Assembly: GCA_026981635.1 (NCBI GenBank)
Contig: JALSIF010000219.1
Location: 1 to 13,793 of the forward strand
DNA from: a bacterium
Lineage (GTDB): Bacteria; 4484-113; JALSIF01
Length of the DNA: 13,793 nucleotides
Direction: 5' to 3'
This document shows positions 1-11,278 of the stretch, piece after piece. Under the pieces are notes generated by a model that saw nothing but the letters and a program-made list of their open reading frames with translations, made no database searches and had not been told where the DNA came from. A program made the translations under genes and the position numbers. Position 1 is the stretch's first letter. Each line of letters begins with the position of its first letter.

Positions 1-971
1 CCGGCTTCATCGGCTCCAATCTGGTGGAAGCTCTGCTCAGCCGGGGGGAGCGAGTCCGGGTAATTGACGACTTCTCCACCGGCCGGCTGGAGAACCTGGC
101 TCCTTTCCTTGACCGCATAGAACTGATTGAGGCCAGCATCACCGATGAAGACACCGTTGAGCGTGCCCTTCAGGGAGTGGACTATGTGCTTCACCAGGCC
201 GCCCTGCCCAGCGTGGCGCGCTCGCTTGAGGAGCCTGCCCGCACCAACCTGGTCAACGTCCAGGGGACGGTCATCCTGCTTGAGGCGGCAATAAGGGCAA
301 GAAACGAGGGGCTTGCCCCCATCAAGCGCTTTGTAATAGCTGGCTCATCCAGTGTTTACGGCAACACAACCCGACTGCCCAAGCGGGAAAGCGATACTCC
401 CTCTCCCCTCTCCCCCTATGCAGTCAGCAAGCTGGCCCAGGAGCATTATGGCCAGATTTTCCACCGGGTCTACGACTTGCCGGTGATAATACTTCGCTAC
501 TTCAACATTTACGGTCCCCGCCAGGATCCCCTGAGCCAATATGCAGCGGTTGTACCTGCCTTCATCACCGCCTTGCTGCGGGGCGATCGGCCGGTTATCT
601 ACGGGGACGGAGAACAAACCAGGGATTTCACCTATGTGGCCGATTGTGTTCAGGCTAACCTCAGGGCCTGCACCGCCCCCAGTGAAGCCTGTGGAAAGAT
701 CTTCAATGTCAGCTTCGGAAAGCGGATCTCCATCAACGAGCTGCTCTCCACCATCTGTGAGCTGATGGGCAAGGAGCCGGTTGAACCCCTCTATCAACCC
801 GCTCGCCCCGGCGATGTGCGTGATTCGCTTGCCGATACCAGCCTGGCCAGGCAGTATCTCGGCTACCATCCCAACTTCCCGCTGGAAAAGGGCCTCATGG
901 AGACCATACGCTGGTTCCAGCAGGCTCAGCCTACCGCCAAAGTGCTTGAGCAGGGAATGGAGCAGGCCTAG
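1..971 (+). CDS. NAD-dependent nucleotide-sugar 4-epimerase (extended SDR), 5'-truncated by window edge
   Basis: The reading frame is open from the first base; the first full codon is at position 3 and encodes GFIGSNLVEALL, the second half of the Rossmann GxxGxxG dinucleotide-binding motif. The true start therefore lies a dozen or so codons outside the window, and the GTG at 24 is not the start. 322 residues are visible. Counting from codon 24, the NAD-binding acidic segment IDDFSTG is at 14-20, the SSSVYG serine motif at 108-113 and the catalytic YxxxK (YAVSK) at 132-136. The RYFNIYGPRQDP and RPGDVRDSLAD segments are typical of UDP-glucose/UDP-N-acetylglucosamine 4-epimerases such as GalE and WbpP. 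The likely role is interconversion of UDP-hexoses or UDP-N-acetylhexosamines for surface polysaccharide; exact substrate is not decidable. The TAG stop shares a CTAG with the stop of the convergent gene. Confidence 0.9.
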   Translation, partial: GFIGSNLVEALLSRGERVRVIDDFSTGRLENLAPFLDRIELIEASITDEDTVERALQGVDYVLHQAALPSVARSLEEPARTNLVNVQGTVILLEAAIRARNEGLAPIKRFVIAGSSSVYGNTTRLPKRESDTPSPLSPYAVSKLAQEHYGQIFHRVYDLPVIILRYFNIYGPRQDPLSQYAAVVPAFITALLRGDRPVIYGDGEQTRDFTYVADCVQANLRACTAPSEACGKIFNVSFGKRISINELLSTICELMGKEPVEPLYQPARPGDVRDSLADTSLARQYLGYHPNFPLEKGLMETIRWFQQAQPTAKVLEQGMEQA

Positions 972-1879
972 CCCAGCTTCACCGTGAGGTAGGCCTTGAG
1001 CTTGTCGGCGATATCGGTGTAGGTTTCATACTCCAGAAGGTCGTGCTTCATGTAGTCCACCAGGGGAAGCTCGTACCCCTCCCCCCGCCTGCGGACAAGC
1101 ACTACCCGCTTGCCCTGGCCATAGGCGACCCCGATAAGCATGAGCATAGTTGAGTTCCACTCATCAATCAGAAACACCGCCGCCTCGCTCTCCTGGATGT
1201 TCTCACACAACCGGCAAGCCTGGTCAAGGTCGTTTAGGGGCTCCTCCATCCGGTAGGGCACTAGATTTATCTCCCGGATGGCGGGCACAATCACCCGCTC
1301 CCAAAGTTCGTCGTTGCGCGCACTCTGGGCAAGGTGCACCGTCACCTTCTTCTCGGTGAAGATGGGGTTTTTCCTGCACTGTCCCTCAGGAAACCTCCAG
1401 CAGCGGATAGTGTCGGTAGCGTCGCGGCGGTTTCTGAGTAGCCTAAGGTAGTCGCGCTTTAACTCCTCCAGCGCCTGTTCAACCTGCTCCTGGGTGACCG
1501 GCAGCTCCACTTCGGCCCCCCCCAGATGGCGCTCCATCTCCACCCCCGGGTTCTGAACCTCGGTGTAGTAGGGGCACTGCTCGCAGGTGGAAAAGTCGTA
1601 GAGCCTGATGCCCAGTTCCCGGCAGCTCATGGAGACGACCACCTTCCCCTCCCCCCGATAGGGCTTAAGCTCCGTTCCCAGGGAAAGGAAGCGGCAACGG
1701 GGGACGGACAGGATCTGGGGGACCTCGCAGTTGTAGCAGGTTAGCGGGTCAACCTCGTTTACGTGGGGATCGGTGGAGATGACGCAGCGGGTGGTTCCAC
1801 GTTCCACCCGCCGGAAACGGCAGGCGGGGATGTCCAGGAAGTTCTCAAAGGTTGGACCTCGCCTTCGCTTAGGGCTCAA
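968..1879 (-). CDS. Cysteine-rich protein with a C-terminal nucleoside deoxyribosyltransferase/TIR-like domain, function unknown
   Basis: This 303-aa protein is not one I recognise by name. The N-terminal half has cysteines at 20, 32, 48, 51, 62, 86, 99 and 102, including CxxC pairs 48/51 and 99/102, which suggests a zinc or iron-sulfur site. Residues about 127-155 are probably helical. C160 and C168 precede the second domain, and C222/C225 form another CxxC. Residues about 177-265 follow the layout of nucleoside 2-deoxyribosyltransferase/TIR-like folds: strand VTVHLA, a helix ending in VIVPAIREINLVPYR, then AAVFLIDEWNST and a helix ending GVAYGQGKRVVLV. The usual N-P-N-V-x-Y-E-L-G segment reads NSTMLMLIG here (242-250), so the glutamate that is catalytic in these families appears replaced by leucine. 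The start is TTG, supported by GGAGG six bases upstream. The gene overlaps the epimerase stop by 4 bp and is divergent from the zinc-ribbon gene. Confidence 0.8.
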   Translation of the reverse strand: MSPKRRRGPTFENFLDIPACRFRRVERGTTRCVISTDPHVNEVDPLTCYNCEVPQILSVPRCRFLSLGTELKPYRGEGKVVVSMSCRELGIRLYDFSTCEQCPYYTEVQNPGVEMERHLGGAEVELPVTQEQVEQALEELKRDYLRLLRNRRDATDTIRCWRFPEGQCRKNPIFTEKKVTVHLAQSARNDELWERVIVPAIREINLVPYRMEEPLNDLDQACRLCENIQESEAAVFLIDEWNSTMLMLIGVAYGQGKRVVLVRRRGEGYELPLVDYMKHDLLEYETYTDIADKLKAYLTVKLG

Positions 1880-1885
1880 CGGCAG

Positions 1886-1890
1886 CCTCC
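1886..1890 (-). promoter_or_regulatory. Shine-Dalgarno site that fixes the TTG start of the 303-aa gene
   Basis: On the minus strand GGAGG is followed by six bases (CTGCCG) and then TTG at 1879. No ATG or GTG near the N-terminus has comparable support, so this site decides the non-ATG start. Confidence 0.7.
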
Positions 1891-1896
1891 GTGAAA

Positions 1897-1905
1897 GTTA
1901 TAGCA
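1897..1905 (-). promoter_or_regulatory. Possible extended -10 promoter for the 303-aa gene
   Basis: The minus strand reads TGC-TATAAC, an extended -10 element (TGn) with one mismatch to TATAAT. It sits about 7 bases before the GGAGG ribosome-binding site. No good -35 hexamer is visible. The predicted transcript would have a leader of only about 11 bases starting near the Shine-Dalgarno site. This is inferred from motif match alone. Confidence 0.35.
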
Positions 1906-1947
1906 CCCATCCCCAAATCCACCGCCCTATGGTGGGCCACCTGCTCC

Positions 1948-1956
1948 TGCTATCAT
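1948..1956 (+). promoter_or_regulatory. Possible extended -10 promoter giving a near-leaderless zinc-ribbon mRNA
   Basis: The plus strand reads TGC-TATCAT, an extended -10 with one mismatch, ending 11 bases before the ATG at 1968. A start site 6-7 bases after it would leave a leader of about five bases or fewer. There is no Shine-Dalgarno sequence before that ATG, which fits leaderless translation. No -35 is evident. Confidence 0.35.
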
Positions 1957-1967
1957 ACCCGCCCACC

Positions 1968-2258
1968 ATGGATGAAGGGAAGGGACGGGACTGCCGTGGA
2001 CTGCTCTACGACCCCTACCCGGAAGGGGTAGGAAGCGGCAACGTACGCTATTTCTTCTGCACTTGTGGAGCCAGTGCCTGGGATCTCAGCACCCTACCCG
2101 GCGGCCAGATCCCCCTGCGCGGGGTCTATGAGATTGCCTGCTGCAACTGCGGTAGAAAGACCCGGTTTGACTTCGGGCGGGAGGTCTTCTACGAACACGA
2201 ACCCTACATCCCAGAGAGCGAAGAGGAGACCAGGTTTGCTGGCCGGGTCTACGACTAG
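1968..2258 (+). CDS. Small zinc-ribbon hypothetical protein (96 aa)
   Basis: The frame is open further upstream, but that part runs antisense into the divergent gene, so I place the start at the ATG at 1968; an in-frame ATG at 1929 is the alternative. Neither has a Shine-Dalgarno sequence. The product is soluble and acidic at its C-terminus. Two cysteine knuckles are visible, CTCG at about residues 29-32 and CCNCG at about 54-58, an arrangement typical of a single zinc ribbon. Aromatic and charged residues follow (FDFGREVFYEHEPYIP). I do not recognise the family. It is divergent from another cysteine-rich gene and convergent with nadA, with only 9 bp between the two stop codons. Zinc binding is inferred from cysteine spacing; a nucleic-acid- or protein-binding role would be a guess. 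Confidence 0.65.
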   Translation: MDEGKGRDCRGLLYDPYPEGVGSGNVRYFFCTCGASAWDLSTLPGGQIPLRGVYEIACCNCGRKTRFDFGREVFYEHEPYIPESEEETRFAGRVYD

Positions 2259-3431: not shown

Positions 3432-3875
3432 TCAGACTGGCGGTGCCTGGCGCTTGACCACCTTCAGGCGGGTGAGGTTTCGCTCCCGCTGAAGCTTGAG
3501 CTCCTCCACCTCCCATGGCTCAAAGGCGGTGTAGGGATCGGCCGAAAGCTGGTTGAGCTTTTCCTCCGCCTCGGCCAGGTTGCGGGTGGCGCGATCCACA
3601 TCAATCTCGTCGCGGTGCTCAGCCATGTCGGCAAGGATGCGCACCCCCTCTCGGTGAACCTCTAGGAACCCACCGTGGGTGGCGAAGAACTCCACCTTCC
3701 CATCGGGAAGGCGGACAATTAGCTCGCCAATGCGCAGGGCAGCGATCATGGGCTGGTGGTGGGCCCAGACCCCAAAGTAGCCGTCCAGCCCGGGGGCGAT
3801 GATGGATACCACCTCACCCTCCCAGATGGGTCCATCGGGGGTGTAGAGCTCAAGCCGGTAGGTCCTAGCAGCCAT
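3432..3875 (-). CDS. atpC: ATP synthase F1 epsilon subunit
   Basis: Epsilon belongs to the central stalk, links gamma to the c-ring and can inhibit ATP hydrolysis. The 147-aa protein has the N-terminal beta-sandwich (about 1-85), with the family motifs LEL.TPDGPI near the start and GYFGVWAHHQPMI at 32-44, followed by a helical C-terminal region. The segment IDVDRA at 91-96 matches the I(L)DxxRA signature associated with ATP binding in epsilon of Bacillus PS3 and relatives, so nucleotide-sensitive inhibition is possible. It starts with ATG 6 bp after the atpD stop; an AGGAGG lies 14 bases upstream inside the end of atpD, which is rather far. It is the last gene of the atp cluster. Confidence 0.95.
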   Translation of the reverse strand: MAARTYRLELYTPDGPIWEGEVVSIIAPGLDGYFGVWAHHQPMIAALRIGELIVRLPDGKVEFFATHGGFLEVHREGVRILADMAEHRDEIDVDRATRNLAEAEEKLNQLSADPYTAFEPWEVEELKLQRERNLTRLKVVKRQAPPV

Positions 3876-3881
3876 CGCCCG

Positions 3882-5333
<1,452 letters not shown>

Positions 5334-5359: not shown

Positions 5360-6268
5360 TCAGGCACCTCCGCCCATCTTGCGCAGCGCTTCTGCGCCGC
5401 CCACGATGTCCAGTATCTCGTTGGTGATGCCCTCCTGGCGGGCCTTGTTGAACCAGAGGGTGAGGGTCTTGATCATGTCCTCTGCCGCCTGGGTGGCGTT
5501 GTCCATTGCCACCATCCTCGCCCCGTGCTCGCTGGTGTAGGTCTCCTGAATGGCCCTAAACAACACCGCCTCGTAGTAGCGGGGAAGCAGGGTGCCGATC
5601 ATCTCCGGCCCGGAGGGCTCAAACAGGACCTCGCCCTTTAGCCCTCCCCCATCTGCCTCGGCAAAGGGCCTGACCGATTCTTCGGTGATGGGGAGAAGCT
5701 GGCGCTGGGTGGGGATGTTTTTGACCACGTTGATGAAGTGGGCGTAGATCAGGTCAACCCGCTCGTAGCGGCCGCTGAAAAACAGCTCCCGGGCAAGGTC
5801 GGCGATGGGCTTTACCTCCCGGTAAGTAGCCTGCTTGGAGAACCATGGATAGTGGCGCACGATCTCAACCTTCCGGCGGCGGAAGAAGAGCCACCCCTTG
5901 CGACCCACCGTAATGAGGTCCACCTCCCTGCCCTGCTCCTTCTGCTGGTGAATGTAGGAGCGGGCCGCCCGGATCAGGTTGGCGTTGAAGGCCCCACACA
6001 GCCCCTTCTCTGCCGTAAGTAGGATAAGCAGGCTGCGACCGGTGGGCTCGGGAACGGTGGAGAGGGGGTGGGGATATTCGGAGAGGTGGGGAGCAAGGTC
6101 GGCCATCAGGCGGTTTAGGGTGTCAAAGTAGGGGGCGCTAAGCCTGGTCTGTCCCTCCGCCCGGGAGAGCTTGGCGGCCGAGACCATCTTCATGGCTCGG
6201 GTTATCTGGCGGGTGTTGTTGACCGACTTTATCCGCCGCTTGATGGCCCTTTCCTTTCCACCCGGCAT
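5360..6268 (-). CDS. atpG: ATP synthase F1 gamma subunit
   Basis: Gamma is the rotating shaft inside the alpha3beta3 hexamer. The 302-aa protein has the two long helices that form the coiled coil: the N-terminal helix with IKRRIKSVNNTRQIT and AMKMVSAAKL in the first 35 residues, and the C-terminal helix with SEHGARMVAMDNATQAAEDM followed by ARQEGITNEILDIVGGAEAL. The central Rossmann-like domain includes the family motif EKGLCGAFNANL near residues 86-97. Length is within the usual 285-310 range. The ATG lies 3 bp after the stop of the unrecognised 145-aa gene, and its AAGGGAG ribosome-binding site is formed by the last codons of that gene, so the two are probably translationally coupled. Confidence 0.97.
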   Translation of the reverse strand: MPGGKERAIKRRIKSVNNTRQITRAMKMVSAAKLSRAEGQTRLSAPYFDTLNRLMADLAPHLSEYPHPLSTVPEPTGRSLLILLTAEKGLCGAFNANLIRAARSYIHQQKEQGREVDLITVGRKGWLFFRRRKVEIVRHYPWFSKQATYREVKPIADLARELFFSGRYERVDLIYAHFINVVKNIPTQRQLLPITEESVRPFAEADGGGLKGEVLFEPSGPEMIGTLLPRYYEAVLFRAIQETYTSEHGARMVAMDNATQAAEDMIKTLTLWFNKARQEGITNEILDIVGGAEALRKMGGGA

Positions 6269-6271
6269 GGC

Positions 6272-6709
6272 CTAACTCCCTTCTCCCTTGCCTTCGTCCT
6301 CTTCCTTCCCGCTTTCTTTCCCCTCTCCCACCTGATCACGAAGATGGGAGGCAAAACCGATCTCTACCCCCTCCTCGGCGGGTGCATAACCCTCCCGCTC
6401 GGGGAAGAAAACCACCGAGGTGATGAACTGCCACAGGATCAGCACATAGGCCTTGTAGCAGACCTTGCGCCGTTTCTCTGGCGGGATGTACTCCCCATCC
6501 TCAGTAAAGGCGGGGATGGAGCAGAAGTTGGGGTGCTCCACCCAGAGGCCAAGCTGGTCCACTCCCACAATACGGGCATAGAAGCTGGGCTCGTCTATGC
6601 CCTGCACACCAATGAGCTTCAAGGCATCGGGATTGACCCTAAGGAGCACCTTGGCCCCCTCAATCTCCTTGATGCTCATCTCTGTAGGGGTACCAGGCAA
6701 CGCTTCCAC
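6272..6709 (-). CDS. Unrecognised 145-aa protein encoded between atpA and atpG
   Basis: I do not recognise this family. The gene sits where most bacteria have atpA directly followed by atpG, with 5 bp to the atpA stop and 3 bp to the atpG start, so it is almost certainly co-transcribed and translationally coupled. The annotated start is GTG, with GAGG three bases upstream and a more distant GGAGAGGCGG; an ATG ten codons later (6679) is the alternative. Residues about 19-100 look like a small beta-rich domain: KVLLRVNPDALKLIG, then FYARIVGVDQLGLWVEHPNF, then YKAYVLILWQFITSVVFFPE. The pattern of alternating hydrophobics ending in W..I.SVV.FPE recalls small beta-barrels (Sm/SH3/PilZ-like), which is an inference. 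There are two cysteines (about 63 and 84), no signal peptide, no convincing membrane helix, and a highly charged, disordered Gly/Glu/Lys tail from about 127. Function unknown; an assembly or regulatory factor for F1 is possible. Confidence 0.8.
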   Translation of the reverse strand: MEALPGTPTEMSIKEIEGAKVLLRVNPDALKLIGVQGIDEPSFYARIVGVDQLGLWVEHPNFCSIPAFTEDGEYIPPEKRRKVCYKAYVLILWQFITSVVFFPEREGYAPAEEGVEIGFASHLRDQVGEGKESGKEEDEGKGEGS

Positions 6710-6714
6710 CTGCC

Positions 6715-8295
6715 TCAGGCCGCCTCTCCGCCGGCCGCCGGCACCTCCTCAAGCTCCCCCTGGGCCTTGAGCTCCTCGCGGAACTTGGCGGTGAACTCCT
6801 CGCAGGCCTTCTTGAGCTTCTGCTCAATCTCCTCGGGGAGCTGGCCGGTCTGGCGGATGTGGATGAGGATCTCCTCGTAATTCTCCTTCACGTAGGCAAT
6901 GAGTCCCTTCTCGTAGTCGCGCACCTTGGCCACCGGAAACTCATCCAGGTAGCCCTGGGTGCCGGCGTAGATGGCTACCACCTGCTCCTCGTTGGGGACC
7001 GGCTGATACTGGCCCTGCTTGAGGAGCTCGGTCATCCGCTCACCGCGGGTGAGCTGACGCTGGGTGGCGGGGTCAAGCTCGGAGCCAAACTGGGCAAAGG
7101 CGGCCAGCTCACGATACTGGGCCAGGGCCAGGCGGAGCATGCCGGCCACCTTCTTCATCGCCTTGGTCTGGGCAGAACCACCCACCCGGCTCACCGAGAG
7201 ACCCACGTTGATGGCCGGTCGGATGCCCTGGTAGAAGAGGTCGGGCTCCAGGTAGATCTGGCCGTCGGTGATGGAGATCACGTTGGTGGGAATGTAGGCG
7301 GAGACGTCGCCCGCCTTGGTCTCAATGATGGGCAGGGCAGTAAGTGACCCGCCGCCGTGATCATCGTTCAGTTTGCAGGCCCGCTCAAGCAGGCGCGAGT
7401 GGAGGTAGAAGACGTCGCCCGGGTAGGCTTCACGGCCCGGCGGGCGGCGAAGCAGCAGGGAGAGGGTGCGGTAGGCATCGGCGTGCTTGGAGAGGTCGTC
7501 GTAGATCACCAGCACATCCTTGCCCTGCCAGAGGAACTCCTCCCCCATGGCGCAGCCGGCGTAGGGGGCGATGTACTGGAGGGGAACTGGGTCGGAGGCA
7601 GTAGCACTTACCACCGTGGTGTACTCCATGGCGCCGTGCTTCTCCAGCACATCCACCACCCGGGCCACGGTGGAGCGCTTCTGCCCGATGGCCACATAGA
7701 TACAGATCACCGGTCGGTCGGTGTTCTGGGTGGATTTCTGGTTGATGATGGTGTCAATGACGATGGCGGTTTTGCCGGTCTGGCGGTCGCCGATGATCAG
7801 CTCACGCTGGCCACGGCCGATGGGGATCATGGAATCTATCGCCTTGATGCCAGTCATCAGGGGGATCTTTACCGGCTCCCTCAGCACCACACCGGGGGCT
7901 TTCACCTCCAGCGGGCGGGTCTTCTTGAGGGGGATGGGGCCCTTGCCGTCGAGCGGCTGACCGAGGGGATTTACCACCCGGCCGATCACCGCCTCCCCCA
8001 CCGGCACGCTCATCACCCGGCCGGTGCGCTTGACTGTGTCCCCCTCCTTCACCTTCTCCCCGGAGCCCATCAGCACCACCCCGACGTTCTCCTCCTCCAG
8101 GTTGAAGGCGATGCCGTAGACCTCGCCGGGGAACTCCAATAGCTCCATCGCCATGCAGTTCTCAAGCCCGAAGACCCGGGCGATACCGTCGCCCACCGAG
8201 AGCACAATCCCCCGGTCCTCCAGCTTGAGCTCCCGCTCGTAGGACTCAAGCTGCTGCTTGATTACACTGGCAATCTCTTCCGGTTTGATGCTCAT
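6715..8295 (-). CDS. atpA: ATP synthase F1 alpha subunit
   Basis: Alpha forms the non-catalytic nucleotide sites and supplies the arginine finger to beta. The 526-aa protein is complete. The N-terminal helix [16 protein letters not shown] for delta contact is followed by the beta-barrel domain (about 25-95). Walker A is GDRQTGKT at 169-176; [16 protein letters not shown] lies at 261-276 (Walker B region). The signature [10 protein letters not shown] precedes the arginine finger R370 in [10 protein letters not shown]. The C-terminal helical domain ends in a Gly/Ala/Glu-rich tail about 15 residues beyond the usual end. The ATG is preceded by a strong GGGAGGAG five bases upstream. The gene lies 21 bp after atpH and 5 bp before the unrecognised 145-aa gene. 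Confidence 0.98.
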
Positions 8296-8316: not shown

Positions 8317-8880
8317 CTAGGCCATCAGGCGAGCCTCCGGTGCATTGAGCAATTCATAGAGCTCCTTGAGGGCGGTGCTCAGGCTTCCGTCTATCACCCG
8401 ATCGCGGCCCAGGTAGACCACCAGGCCACCCAGCAGGTCGGGATTCACCCTGAAGGTGGTGCGGAAGTTGTAGTCACTGAACTTCTTAATCACCGCAAGA
8501 AGCTCCTGCTTCTCCTCCTCGGTGAGCTCCACCGCACTCTCCACCACCACATCCTCCACCCCGCGATAGCGGTCGGTGAGGATGTCGTAGTAGTCCAGCA
8601 CCGCCTGAATGTCGGCCGCCCTCCCCCTGCGCAGCATGAGTCTGATCAGCTCAAGCAGGGGTCTTGCGGGAGGCTCCTCAAATAGCTCCTGGATAAACTG
8701 GAGCTTGGCCTCCAGGCTGATCTCGGGGTGCTGGATGAAGCGGCGCACCTCGGGATCGGAAAGCTTTTTCTCCAGGTACATGGCCTGCTGGTCAATCTCC
8801 TCCACCAGCCCCTTCTCTTTAGCCAGCTCAAACAGGGCGGTGGCGTAGCGCTTGGCCACTGGCAGATTTACTCCCTTCAT
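8317..8880 (-). CDS. atpH: ATP synthase F1 delta subunit
   Basis: Delta joins the peripheral stalk (b) to the top of F1 through the N-termini of alpha. The 187-aa protein begins with the six-helix bundle domain: AKRYATALFELAKEKG at about 9-24 is the family hallmark. The C-terminal domain carries the conserved NPDLLGGLVVYLGRDRVIDG segment followed by a final helix STALKELYELL. Length is typical (175-190). The ATG lies 11 bp after the atpF stop and has only a weak GGGGCGG nearby, so translation may depend on coupling with atpF. Sequence divergence is normal for this fast-evolving subunit, and synteny settles the assignment. Confidence 0.95.
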   Translation of the reverse strand: MKGVNLPVAKRYATALFELAKEKGLVEEIDQQAMYLEKKLSDPEVRRFIQHPEISLEAKLQFIQELFEEPPARPLLELIRLMLRRGRAADIQAVLDYYDILTDRYRGVEDVVVESAVELTEEEKQELLAVIKKFSDYNFRTTFRVNPDLLGGLVVYLGRDRVIDGSLSTALKELYELLNAPEARLMA

Positions 8881-8891
8881 GGCCGCCCCAC

Positions 8892-9383
8892 TCAGAGCTC
8901 CCTTAGCTCGCCGATGAAGCGCCTGACCAGCTGGTGGTGCTTCTCTTCATCCAGACCCTCGCGGAGGACCTTGCGGGTGAGGTCAAAGCTAAGGTCAATG
9001 GCCAGGCGGCGGATCTCCTCCTTGGCCGCCTCCCGCTCCCGCTCAATCTCCTCGCGGGCTCGCTGGAGCATACGCTCCTTCTGCAGCTCCGCCTCCTCAC
9101 GAAGCTTCTCGGCCAGCTCCTCCCCTTTGCGCATCGCCTCCTGGAAGCGCTTCTGGGCCTCGTCCTCAATCTTTCTCAGCCTCTCCTCCAGCTCCTTCTG
9201 GCGCTGGTCAAGCTCCGCCTGTCGCCGCTCGGCCTCCTTGAAACCCTGCTCAATCAAGGCCCGGCGCTGGTCAATTACCTCCACCACCGGCTTCCAGGCC
9301 AGCCGGTAGAGGACATACCAGAAGACCAGCGTGCCGATGAGGGCGATGGGGATGAGCTTTACCTGTTCAATGAAGAATTCCAC
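8892..9383 (-). CDS. atpF: ATP synthase Fo b subunit
   Basis: Subunit b forms the peripheral stalk that holds alpha3beta3 still. The 163-aa protein has one N-terminal membrane helix at about 10-28 (IPIALIGTLVFWYVLYRLAW), then the conserved KPVVEVIDQRRALI turn into a long, highly charged helix rich in Glu, Arg, Gln and Ala up to about residue 130, and a C-terminal delta-binding segment ending FIGELREL. The start is GTG, not ATG, and is supported by AGGAGG six bases upstream; this ribosome-binding site overlaps the TAG stop of atpE. A single b gene is present, so the stalk is probably a homodimer, unlike the b/b' pair of phototrophs. Confidence 0.96.
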   Translation of the reverse strand: MEFFIEQVKLIPIALIGTLVFWYVLYRLAWKPVVEVIDQRRALIEQGFKEAERRQAELDQRQKELEERLRKIEDEAQKRFQEAMRKGEELAEKLREEAELQKERMLQRAREEIEREREAAKEEIRRLAIDLSFDLTRKVLREGLDEEKHHQLVRRFIGELREL

Positions 9384-9389
9384 CCGCGC

Positions 9390-9395
9390 CCTCCT
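9390..9395 (-). promoter_or_regulatory. Shine-Dalgarno site of atpF overlapping the atpE stop codon
   Basis: AGGAGG lies six bases before the GTG of atpF, and its first two bases are the AG of the atpE TAG. This decides the GTG start and suggests translational coupling between c and b. Confidence 0.65.
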
Positions 9396-9609
9396 ACTTT
9401 ACGAAGGCGATCAGGAGCACGTAGAGGGTGAGCGCCTCAATGAAGCCCGCACCGATCAGCATGGCGGTCTGGATGCGGCCGATGGCCTCCGGCTGACGGC
9501 CCATCGCCTGCATGGCACCCATGCCCAGCAGGCCGATGCCGATGCCGCTGCCGATCACCGACAGACCAACTCCAAGTGCGTATCCGGCTCCCTCTGCTGG
9601 AATGCCCAT
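9394..9609 (-). CDS. atpE: ATP synthase Fo c subunit
   Basis: The c subunit forms the rotating membrane ring that carries the coupling ion. The 71-aa protein is a two-helix hairpin: helix 1 about 8-33 with the glycine-rich GSGIGIGLLGMGAM packing motif, the cytoplasmic loop GRQPE at 37-41, and helix 2 about 47-70 with the ion-binding carboxylate E58 (GFIEALTLY). Compared with the sodium-binding ring of Ilyobacter, the helix-1 Gln is replaced by Ile and the Ser-Thr after the Glu by Ala-Leu, so proton coupling is predicted. The ATG at 9609 is chosen because AAGGAGG lies 11 bases upstream and the protein then has standard length; the frame continues upstream but would overlap atpB and lacks family similarity there. 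Confidence 0.96.
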   Translation of the reverse strand: MGIPAEGAGYALGVGLSVIGSGIGIGLLGMGAMQAMGRQPEAIGRIQTAMLIGAGFIEALTLYVLLIAFVK

Positions 9610-9620
9610 TTTGGTTCTTT

Positions 9621-9627
9621 CCTCCTT
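9621..9627 (-). promoter_or_regulatory. Shine-Dalgarno site of atpE
   Basis: AAGGAGG on the minus strand, 11 bases before the ATG at 9609. The A-rich spacer is likely unstructured. The site fixes the 71-aa start rather than longer upstream alternatives. Confidence 0.65.
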
Positions 9628-9653
9628 CTTGGAATTTGTGGATCTCTCTTTGG

Positions 9654-9669
9654 CCCCGCTTGGGCGGGG
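9654..9669 (-). promoter_or_regulatory. GC-rich stem-loop in the atpB-atpE intercistronic region
   Basis: On the transcript CCCCGC and GCGGGG pair perfectly (6 bp, all G-C) around the tetraloop CCAA. It lies 25 bases after the atpB stop and 44 bases before the atpE start, with no U-tract, so it is not a standard terminator. At this position in other bacteria, leader structure raises c-subunit synthesis or stabilises the atpE mRNA; a similar role is inferred here. Confidence 0.6.
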
Positions 9670-9694
9670 ATAGCTTACAAGGATCGGTTCTAGC

Positions 9695-10582
9695 CTAGGC
9701 GGCGTGGCCCGCCTCCTCGTGGGCGTGCTCCTCATGGGGAAGGGATAGGGCGATATAGAGGGTGGAGAGGAGAGAAAAGATTACCGCCTGGATCACCGAG
9801 AGCAGTGCGGCCAGGAAGATGAAGAAGAAGTAGAGGAAGACGCCCATGAACTTGGGAAGTAGGCCGGTGCCCACCGTACCTACCACTAGGCCGCCAAACA
9901 CGGCCAGGAGCACATCCTTGGAGAAGATGTTGCCGAACAGTCGCAGGGAGAGGCTCACCGGTCGCATGAGCTTCTCCATCAAGTGGATGATGGCAAACAG
10001 CGCCCCCAGAAGGACGGTCATCACCAAGGGAAGGGAGGGGTCGTAGCCCACCAGGTGGAGGAAATACTTCTTGGGGCCGTTTCTCACCAGCTCGGTTATC
10101 TCGGTGGCGAAAAATACCACCAGCGCCATGCCGAAGTTGATCCCCCACACCGAGGAGGGAGGCTTCATCAGTACCACCAGCTCAAAGAAATTCATGAAGA
10201 GGATGACCACAAACAGCCCTCCCACCAGGCCGATGTAGCGGTCAACCTCCTTGGCACCCAGGATCTCCCCGAAGAATCTCCTCAGCCCGTCCACCACCCA
10301 CTCGGTGAAGATGGCAAACCGGCTCCCCGGCTTTACCCTGACCAGGCGGGAGAAAACCACCGCCCAGCCGAGGACGATGACGAGGGCTAGGGTGAAATAG
10401 AAAACAGTAGAGATATCCTTCACCGTGTAGGCGAAGAGGTCGGAGCCAAAAAGCTTGAACACTACCGTCTCCGGTGACGCATCAGGTAGTGCTCGTAGGA
10501 AAAGCAGGGTAACAAGATCGGGGAGCTCGGGTACGTGTACCCCGGCTGCCTCACCACCTTCACCGCCAACCAGGATAAACAT
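9695..10582 (-). CDS. atpB: ATP synthase Fo a subunit
   Basis: Subunit a provides the ion half-channels next to the c-ring. The frame is open further upstream, but I choose the ATG at 10582 (295 aa) because the upstream part overlaps the atpI-like gene and the ATG follows an AGGTGG four bases before it. The protein has five or six membrane helices; the signature LSLRLFGNIFSKDVLL contains the essential arginine, R214 in this numbering (E. coli R210). The penultimate helix has SVIQAVIFSLLSTLYIALS, with Q265 at the place of E. coli Q252. The spacing between these two residues is about nine larger than in E. coli, with a loop around GTVGTGLLPKF. The C-terminus is His/Glu-rich (LPHEEHAHEEAGHAA), which may face the aqueous side and bind metal, an inference. 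Confidence 0.95.
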   Translation of the reverse strand: MFILVGGEGGEAAGVHVPELPDLVTLLFLRALPDASPETVVFKLFGSDLFAYTVKDISTVFYFTLALVIVLGWAVVFSRLVRVKPGSRFAIFTEWVVDGLRRFFGEILGAKEVDRYIGLVGGLFVVILFMNFFELVVLMKPPSSVWGINFGMALVVFFATEITELVRNGPKKYFLHLVGYDPSLPLVMTVLLGALFAIIHLMEKLMRPVSLSLRLFGNIFSKDVLLAVFGGLVVGTVGTGLLPKFMGVFLYFFFIFLAALLSVIQAVIFSLLSTLYIALSLPHEEHAHEEAGHAA

Positions 10583-10586
10583 CCTT

Positions 10587-10592
10587 CCACCT
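10587..10592 (-). promoter_or_regulatory. Shine-Dalgarno site of atpB overlapping the stop of the atpI-like gene
   Basis: AGGTGG on the minus strand lies four bases before the ATG at 10582 and overlaps the TAG of the upstream atpI-like gene (10591-10593). It supports the shorter atpB start. Confidence 0.5.
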
Positions 10593-11046
10593 ACCTGCCT
10601 AACTCTGAGTGCCTCTTTCGCCCGCTTCCCCAAAGCTGGGACACACCCAGCCCCAGCAGGGTCGCGGGTACCGCTCCCACGCCCACAACAAGCCCCATCC
10701 ACTCGCCTCTAAGCCACCAGAAGATGGGGATAAGGCTAAGGAGCGCCGAGAGTTTAGCAACGAGAACTAGAAGTGTAAACCAGCCCGGCGGGGCGGGCCG
10801 ATCACCCCCCCCATGGAGGGGACGAAACAGGCTCCGAATGGTTGCCCCAAGCAGCAGCCAGTTTATAAGCGACCATCCCCCCATCACCAGCAAGGAGCGG
10901 TAGGTAAGGCCGGGAACTAGGGGAACAAGTGCCAGCCAAGCCAGGGTCCAGAAGAGGATGCCCAGGGCGACCCTGCTTTCCCGGTAGGGGGAATCGGGGT
11001 CGGCCGAAAACACCTCCCGCACCCAGCTTGGATCAGGAGCTGCCAT
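10591..11046 (-). CDS. atpI: AtpI-like membrane protein (ATP synthase accessory)
   Basis: The 151-aa protein sits immediately upstream of atpB, the usual place of atpI. Four hydrophobic segments are visible at about 27-45, 51-70, 89-110 and 116-138, separated by a proline/glycine-rich cytoplasmic loop (HGGGDRPAPPG). The four-helix plan fits the ATP synthase subunit I family, which helps assemble the c-ring in some bacteria; sequence motifs in this family are weak, so assignment rests on topology and position. The soluble N-terminus (1-25) is acidic and polar. The ATG overlaps the 3' end of the preceding atpZ-like gene by 14 bp, and no Shine-Dalgarno sequence is visible, so translation is probably coupled. 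Confidence 0.75.
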   Translation of the reverse strand: MAAPDPSWVREVFSADPDSPYRESRVALGILFWTLAWLALVPLVPGLTYRSLLVMGGWSLINWLLLGATIRSLFRPLHGGGDRPAPPGWFTLLVLVAKLSALLSLIPIFWWLRGEWMGLVVGVGAVPATLLGLGVSQLWGSGRKRHSELGR

Positions 11047-11278
11047 CGGTGAGTTTGGCCACCTGGCCGATGAGATTTGCCACCTCTATCAGACTTGCCA
11101 CCAGCCCCAGCAGGGTGACCAGGGGCATCAGGAAGGTGGTGCCCAGCTTGCCGTCCAAGAATCTGCCCAGAAAGAAGCCCACCAGGGGACCCGCCACCAT
11201 CACCATGGGGATGGTGCTGGCGATGGCATAGATCCTTAGCTGGCGGCTTAGCCCCTTGGGGTCGTCAAAGAAGCCCAC
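11033..11278 (-). CDS. atpZ: AtpZ-like membrane protein (ATP synthase gene-1 family)
   Basis: The 81-aa protein has two membrane helices, about 15-38 and 48-70, joined by a short loop. The glycine pattern GPLVGFFLGRFLDGKLGTT resembles the G...G...LD...GT signature of the small AtpZ/'gene 1' family that precedes atpI in many operons; in Bacillus AtpZ has been linked to c-ring assembly and divalent cation handling. The start is a GTG; a GGGGG run lies 14 bases upstream, so the ribosome-binding site is weak. It is the first gene of the atp cluster, only 18 bp after the stop of the metalloprotease gene, leaving no room for a conventional promoter between them. The 3' end overlaps the atpI-like gene by 14 bp. 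Confidence 0.75.
   Translation of the reverse strand: MGFFDDPKGLSRQLRIYAIASTIPMVMVAGPLVGFFLGRFLDGKLGTTFLMPLVTLLGLVASLIEVANLIGQVAKLTDGSS

What the first reader, a model, noticed from the sequence alone, without database searches (positions are those of the whole stretch)
6272..6709. Unrecognised gene embedded between atpA and atpG
The atp operon is otherwise in the standard order (B-E-F-H-A-G-D-C), yet a 145-aa gene lies between atpA and atpG with spacers of 5 and 3 bp, and the atpG ribosome-binding site lies in its 3' end. Such packing implies co-expression in fixed proportion with F1. The product looks like a small beta-rich domain plus a charged disordered tail, with no sign of membrane insertion. 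It could be an F1 assembly chaperone, a hydrolysis inhibitor, or an added subunit. If the gene is conserved at this place in related genomes, it would be an undescribed ATP synthase accessory factor.
Basis: partly seen in the sequence, partly recalled or inferred. Interest (0 to 1): 0.7.

Follow-up and report, generated by a model that had tools for sequence, protein, structure and literature searches.

The report
Sm-like gene inside ATP-synthase operon
All ten available genomes of one uncultured bacterial phylum (probably UBP7) carry an extra gene inside the ATP-synthase operon, for a small protein predicted to fold like Sm/Hfq RNA-chaperone proteins but without their RNA-binding residues; it is probably a helper for large energy complexes, but relatives live away from ATP synthase, so the link is a strong hint and not proof.

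Summary
The gene is real. It lies on the minus strand (6272-6709; start probably TTG at 6700), packed between atpA and atpG. It is at the same place in 10/10 genomes of the window's phylum (probably UBP7), with overlaps or gaps of -8 to +35 bp and core dN/dS of about 0.07-0.15. It matches nothing in Pfam, NCBIfam or PDB sequences. Two AlphaFold models, of the window protein and of a Marinimicrobia relative, give an Sm/LSm/Hfq-like fold plus a disordered, lineage-variable tail. It is not Hfq: no profile match, the Hfq YKH motif is replaced around an invariant Trp, and the core is acidic. The place is conserved phylum-wide, but the family is older and wider: relatives sit beside mnmG, ligA/ABC exporter, cooS and others, and four such genomes have no F-type gamma gene. 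Diverged paralogs sit between nuoD and nuoE in three of the same phylum's genomes. Best reading: an Sm-fold protein-binding accessory factor recruited to the F1 genes, working like Rof on Rho. Function is untested. Main rivals: an RNA- or Rho-level expression regulator, or a housekeeping gene locked into a strong operon.

The parts
6272..6709 (-). Gene X: Sm-like-fold protein of an unnamed family; GTG start at 6709 or, more likely, TTG at 6700
   Evidence: ORF; homologs in 10/10 genomes of the phylum; AF2 + Foldseek + VIA
6353..6679 (-). Conserved core of X (residues about 11-119: alpha1, beta1-5, ending in the IGF motif)
   Evidence: alignments; pLDDT
6272..6352 (-). Disordered charged tail of X (residues 120-145); its codons overlap the atpG ribosome-binding region
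   Evidence: pLDDT about 50; tail variable in length and charge
6715..8295 (-). atpA (F1 alpha), upstream neighbour
5360..6268 (-). atpG (F1 gamma), downstream neighbour, 3 bp after X
3432..5327 (-). atpD (3882-5327) and atpC (3432-3875), rest of the F1 genes
8317..11278 (-). atpH, atpF, atpE, atpB and two small atpI/atpZ-like membrane genes

Best explanation
Gene X encodes a small cytosolic protein with an Sm/LSm-like fold and an acidic surface, from a widespread but undescribed bacterial family. In the common ancestor of this phylum one member was placed between atpA and atpG and has stayed there. The most likely mode of action is protein binding and not RNA binding: X would bind F1 subunits (alpha, or the alpha/beta ring) as they are made next to it and help fold, assemble or regulate F1. 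The model is Rof, an Sm-like protein that binds protomer interfaces of the hexameric ATPase Rho; that Rho is related to F1 alpha/beta is established knowledge, not tested here. A diverged sister would serve complex I in three genomes. Shown: real gene, conserved place, purifying selection, family. Predicted: fold. Inferred: partner and mechanism.
For: 10/10 genomes of the phylum carry it exactly between atpA and atpG, with core dN/dS of 0.07-0.15. Two AF2 models (window protein; Marinimicrobia relative) match Sm/LSm/Hfq chains almost exclusively at the top of the PDB (Foldseek prob 0.80-0.95 and 0.9-0.99 for the best rows; VIA Z 7.2 and 6.8 over 56-64 residues), with alpha-beta5 topology. Against RNA binding: core net charge -5 to -9 in the phylum; Hfq Y55-K56-H57 replaced by x-W93-x with W invariant (alignment; equivalence is my inference from the beta4-turn-beta5 position in the model). 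Diverged paralogs between nuoD and nuoE (hhalign prob 96%, P 1.4e-9; two in tandem in G005, one each in G007 and G008) and a homolog directly after cooS in G143 show repeated placement in energy-complex operons. Rof precedent: PMC11018626.
Against: Relatives outside the phylum sit at unrelated places (after mnmG, between ligA-region genes and an ABC exporter, beside other transport genes), and four of those genomes lack F-type gamma, so the ancestral job is not F1-specific. Each single fold match is weak (Foldseek E 0.05-1; Z about 7 can be a common arrangement). No contact with F1 subunits was tested. In vitro assembly of bacterial F1 without chaperones has been reported (PMC8904574).
Confidence: 0.4

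Rival explanations
1. X works at the expression level. As an Sm-like protein it binds the atp transcript at the alpha-gamma boundary (setting the 3:1 alpha:gamma output or stabilising the mRNA), or it acts like Rof on Rho and keeps long operons from being terminated early.
For: Sm-like fold. None of the 10 UBP7 genomes has a detectable Hfq, nor any of the other X-bearing genomes over the cut-off. Members lie in long operons (atp, nuo). Some UBP7 tails are Lys-rich. Rof and Hfq both inhibit Rho (PMC11018626).
Against: Acidic core; Hfq RNA-contact motif absent; no Rfam element in the window. Hfq is absent from most sampled genomes anyway (61/385 over the cut-off), so the exclusion is not significant when lineages are counted. 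No ROF (PF07073) match. A trans-acting regulator need not sit in the operon.
Confidence: 0.25
2. Housekeeping hitchhiker: X has a general cellular function unrelated to ATP synthase and was locked into the strongly expressed atp operon by chance in the ancestor of the phylum.
For: Family members in other phyla are scattered (mnmG, ligA/ABC exporter, cooS, FmdB-like gene, ABC transporter). Four X-bearing genomes have no F-type gamma. X is single-copy in nearly every genome holding it, as expected of a housekeeping gene.
Against: The place is kept across all four families and eight genera of the phylum that are held; separate paralogs landed inside nuo operons. Both would be coincidences.
Confidence: 0.3
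3. F1 hydrolysis inhibitor (zeta-, IF1- or AtpTheta-like).
For: Position within F1 genes; disordered charged tail in the window protein.
Against: zeta is a four-helix bundle and IF1 one extended helix (PMC9317440), whereas X is a beta-barrel. The tail is not conserved, so it can hardly be an inhibitory segment. zeta genes lie outside atp operons (PMC9317440).
Confidence: 0.04

Closest known systems
Hfq (PF17209) and the Sm/LSm superfamily
   Same: Predicted alpha1-beta1-5 Sm-like fold; conserved Asp in the beta2-beta3 region in the Sm1 position (D51, in register with the FD of Hfq in the hhalign match, which is itself not significant); short beta4-beta5 turn
   Different: No sequence-profile match (prob 0.5%); long beta3-beta4 insertion in most members; YKH replaced by xWx; acidic core; place in atp/nuo operons
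Rof/YaeO (PF07073)
   Same: Small Sm-like protein; Rof acts by binding a hexameric RecA-type ATPase (Rho), distantly related to F1 alpha/beta (mode of action proposed here by analogy)
   Different: No Pfam match; phyla and gene place differ; target of X unknown
F1 assembly chaperones Atp11/Atp12; assembly factor AtpI
   Same: Proposed role (assembly of F1 or Fo); AtpI-like genes are in the same operon
   Different: X matches none of these Pfam families; it is soluble, not a membrane protein like AtpI; PMC8904574 states that no F1-specific chaperones like Atp11/Atp12 were identified in bacteria, apart from an Atp12 homolog in proteobacteria
F1 inhibitors zeta, IF1, AtpTheta
   Same: Supernumerary small proteins of ATP synthase
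   Different: zeta and IF1 are alpha-helical; X is a beta-barrel encoded inside the operon

Membership tests
Sm/LSm fold superfamily (as a fold) | N-terminal helix plus five-stranded bent barrel (alpha-beta5) | tested here: met
   AF2 models of two family members with the topology helix plus five strands; top PDB matches nearly all Sm/LSm/Hfq. Prediction only; each match alone is weak.
Sm/LSm fold superfamily (as a fold) | Ring-forming oligomer | not testable with these tools
   No complex prediction available.
Hfq (PF17209) | Match to the Hfq profile | tested here: not met
   No Pfam hit; PF17209 finds nothing in the 10 UBP7 genomes; hhalign prob 0.5%, like shuffled controls.
Hfq (PF17209) | Y/F-K-H motif in the beta4-beta5 turn, for U-rich RNA | tested here: not met
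   Alignment: x-W-x with W93 invariant in the 16 sequences; the Hfq comparison sequences were selected on that motif.
Hfq (PF17209) | RNA binding | not testable with these tools
   Acidic core argues against it.
Rof/YaeO (PF07073) | Match to the ROF profile | tested here: not met
   Pfam scans, no hit.
Rof/YaeO (PF07073) | Binds the Rho hexamer | not testable with these tools
   Needs experiment.
zeta/IF1 inhibitors of F1 | Alpha-helical fold with disordered inhibitory N-terminus | tested here: not met
   Beta-barrel; the disordered part is at the C-terminus and not conserved.
Atp11/Atp12 F1 chaperones | Pfam match | tested here: not met
   No hit.
ATP-synthase-only accessory family | Found only with F-type ATP synthase | tested here: not met
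   Four homolog-bearing genomes lack F-type gamma.
X family (this family) | nuoD-nuoE paralogs are homologous to X | tested here: met
   hhalign prob 96%, P 1.4e-9; reversed control 0.7%.

The most novel reading that the evidence does not exclude
An undescribed bacterial family of Sm-fold proteins acts as dedicated assembly or regulatory factors for large respiratory complexes: one member is a phylum-wide accessory factor of F1-ATPase, a sister (sometimes in tandem, perhaps a hetero-oligomer) serves complex I.
Probability: 0.3. Interest if true: 0.8.

Novelty: new variant of a known kind. Interest (0 to 1): 0.56.

Why it matters
The F1 part of the atp operon is one of the most constant gene blocks in bacteria (established knowledge). 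A ninth gene fixed inside it across a whole phylum is unusual, and PMC8904574 states that F1-specific chaperones like mitochondrial Atp11/Atp12 were not identified in bacteria, apart from an Atp12 homolog in proteobacteria. A protein with an Sm-like fold there, with relatives in the complex I operon, would either add a new class of complex-assembly factor or show an Sm-type protein tuning expression of energy operons. Either can be tested directly by cloning the operon.

Tried and rejected
Single-protein scan of genome contigs with the window sequence: nothing; the alignment query worked. Pfam, NCBIfam, PHROGs and PDB-sequence searches: no family. Hfq by profile: rejected. Hfq-X mutual exclusion: X-bearing genomes have no Hfq over the cut-off, but only 61/385 sampled genomes do, so with about 8 independent lineages this is not significant. 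Viral fold library: only weak, mostly unnamed matches, one of them called Sm-like. Rfam on the window: nothing. Protein tree: too short and divergent to prove that the 10 atp-linked copies are one clade. Papers: no mention found of a gene between atpA and atpG or between nuoD and nuoE (open-licence papers only). The fold of the nuo paralogs was not tested, because those loci may not be sent to the predictor.

Full report
OBSERVATION. The window holds an atp operon on the minus strand. Between atpA (6715-8295) and atpG (5360-6268) lies an ORF at 6272-6709, with gaps of 5 and 3 bp. I call it X. In relative G008 the same ribosome-binding sequence AGGTGGAAGCG precedes an ATG where the window has TTG at 6700, so the protein most likely starts there (142 aa) and not at the GTG (145 aa).

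CONSERVATION. The window is a contig of a 1.7 Mb, 85% complete genome. All nine other held genomes of the class, and so all ten of the phylum with the window's own, have X. One of these genomes carries the record title 'UBP7' (L027), so the phylum is probably UBP7; this rests on one record title. In all ten the gene sits between atpA and atpG, with junctions from an 8-bp overlap to a 35-bp gap; in several the X stop codon lies within the first codons of atpG, as in translational coupling. dN/dS (NG86) over the core is 0.07 for G003/G006 and 0.15 for G007/G008; atpG of the first pair gives 0.07-0.11. So the gene is real and constrained.

FAMILY. No Pfam, NCBIfam, PHROGs or PDB-sequence match. 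An alignment-based scan of about 85,000 species genomes found relatives in SZUA-336, two KSB3 genomes and five Marinimicrobia. A 385-genome sample added a few more lineages (one of them, G244, has the same contig as a KSB3 hit). Invariant in 16 sequences are G37, G49, D51, G54, W56, E58, A87, W93 and P103. None of the outside copies examined is at atp genes: KSB3 copies follow mnmG, Marinimicrobia copies lie by ligA-region genes and an ABC exporter, G106/G372 near an ABC transporter, G143 directly after a cooS-like CO dehydrogenase gene, G370 after an FmdB-like gene (neighbour names are my reading of the sequences). Six of these genomes with F-ATPase have an uninterrupted atpA-atpG junction. 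Four X-bearing genomes (G012, G143, G386, G387) have no F-type gamma at all.

PARALOGS IN COMPLEX I OPERONS. In three genomes of one family of the phylum, diverged relatives lie between nuoD and nuoE: one in G007 and G008, two in tandem in G005. Homology to X is clear at profile level (hhalign prob 96%, P 1.4e-9; reversed control 0.7%). Six other genomes of the phylum have nuoD followed by nuoE without such a gene; the window's genome has no nuoD hit.

FOLD. AlphaFold2 on the window protein gives mean pLDDT of 83-97 per ten-residue block for residues 11-100, as a helix plus five strands, and a disordered tail. Foldseek against the PDB returns Sm, LSm, Gemin and Hfq chains as nearly all top hits (prob to 0.95, E 0.06-1); VIA Z 7.2. 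A second model, of a 111-aa Marinimicrobia relative, gives the same picture. The agreement of two models and the uniformity of the lists make an Sm-like fold likely, though each match alone is weak and Z of about 7 can be a common arrangement. The two models share one alignment, so they are not fully independent.

NOT HFQ. The X profile does not match a profile of real Hfq sequences (prob 0.5%, within the shuffled range). The turn between beta4 and beta5, where Hfq has Y-K-H, holds x-W-x with W invariant (position equivalence inferred from the model). Cores in the phylum have net charge -5 to -9 (pI 4.4-5.2), Hfq controls 0 or positive. The phylum has no detectable Hfq (0/10), but Hfq is absent from most sampled genomes, so replacement of Hfq is not shown.

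MECHANISM. An acidic Sm-like protein without the RNA-contact residues points to protein binding. The nearest functional precedent is Rof, an Sm-like protein that binds protomer interfaces of the hexameric ATPase Rho (PMC11018626); Rho and F1 alpha/beta belong to the same RecA/F1 ATPase group (established knowledge, not tested here). I therefore favour a factor that binds F1 subunits and helps assembly or regulation, made in place between alpha and gamma (0.4). The alternatives are expression control through RNA or Rho (0.25) and a housekeeping gene fixed there by chance (0.3). A classical inhibitor is unlikely: zeta and IF1 are helical (PMC9317440), and the tail of X varies freely.

VERDICT. 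Observation confirmed. Interpretation partly supported: a phylum-wide conserved extra gene, yes; an ATP-synthase-only factor, no; function untested.

Noticed in passing
L068:6399-6719, L088 (tandem pair after nuoD), L071, L072:598-915: Diverged Sm-like paralogs of X between nuoD and nuoE of complex I operons in three genomes of the phylum (two in tandem in G005); absent from the nuoD-nuoE junctions of six others.
   Followed up: yes
L014, L018, L019 (atpA); L012 without Cys: In one family (G001, G005, G007, G008) AtpA carries a ~38-aa insertion just before GGS[IL]TALPVIETQAGDV; in three it is a CxxC...CxxC zinc-ribbon-like insert, Cys-less in G001.
   Followed up: partly
L012:4298-5155, L014:8468-9205, L018:597-1538: In members of the same family a 245-313 aa gene (signal-peptide-like start in L012 and L014) lies between atpG and atpD, with no significant Pfam match.
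   Followed up: partly
L030/L031 (KSB3), G386, G387: Two KSB3 genomes show no F-type gamma gene by protein or Pfam search yet keep the X homolog right after mnmG.
   Followed up: partly
L067:6753-7100: X homolog directly downstream of a cooS-like CO dehydrogenase gene and a ferredoxin-type gene in G143, a genome without F-type gamma.
   Followed up: no
window 968-1879 (-) and 1773-2258 (+): Two further window ORFs without a significant Pfam match: a 303-aa Cys-containing protein and a Cys-rich (zinc-ribbon-like) protein.
   Followed up: no
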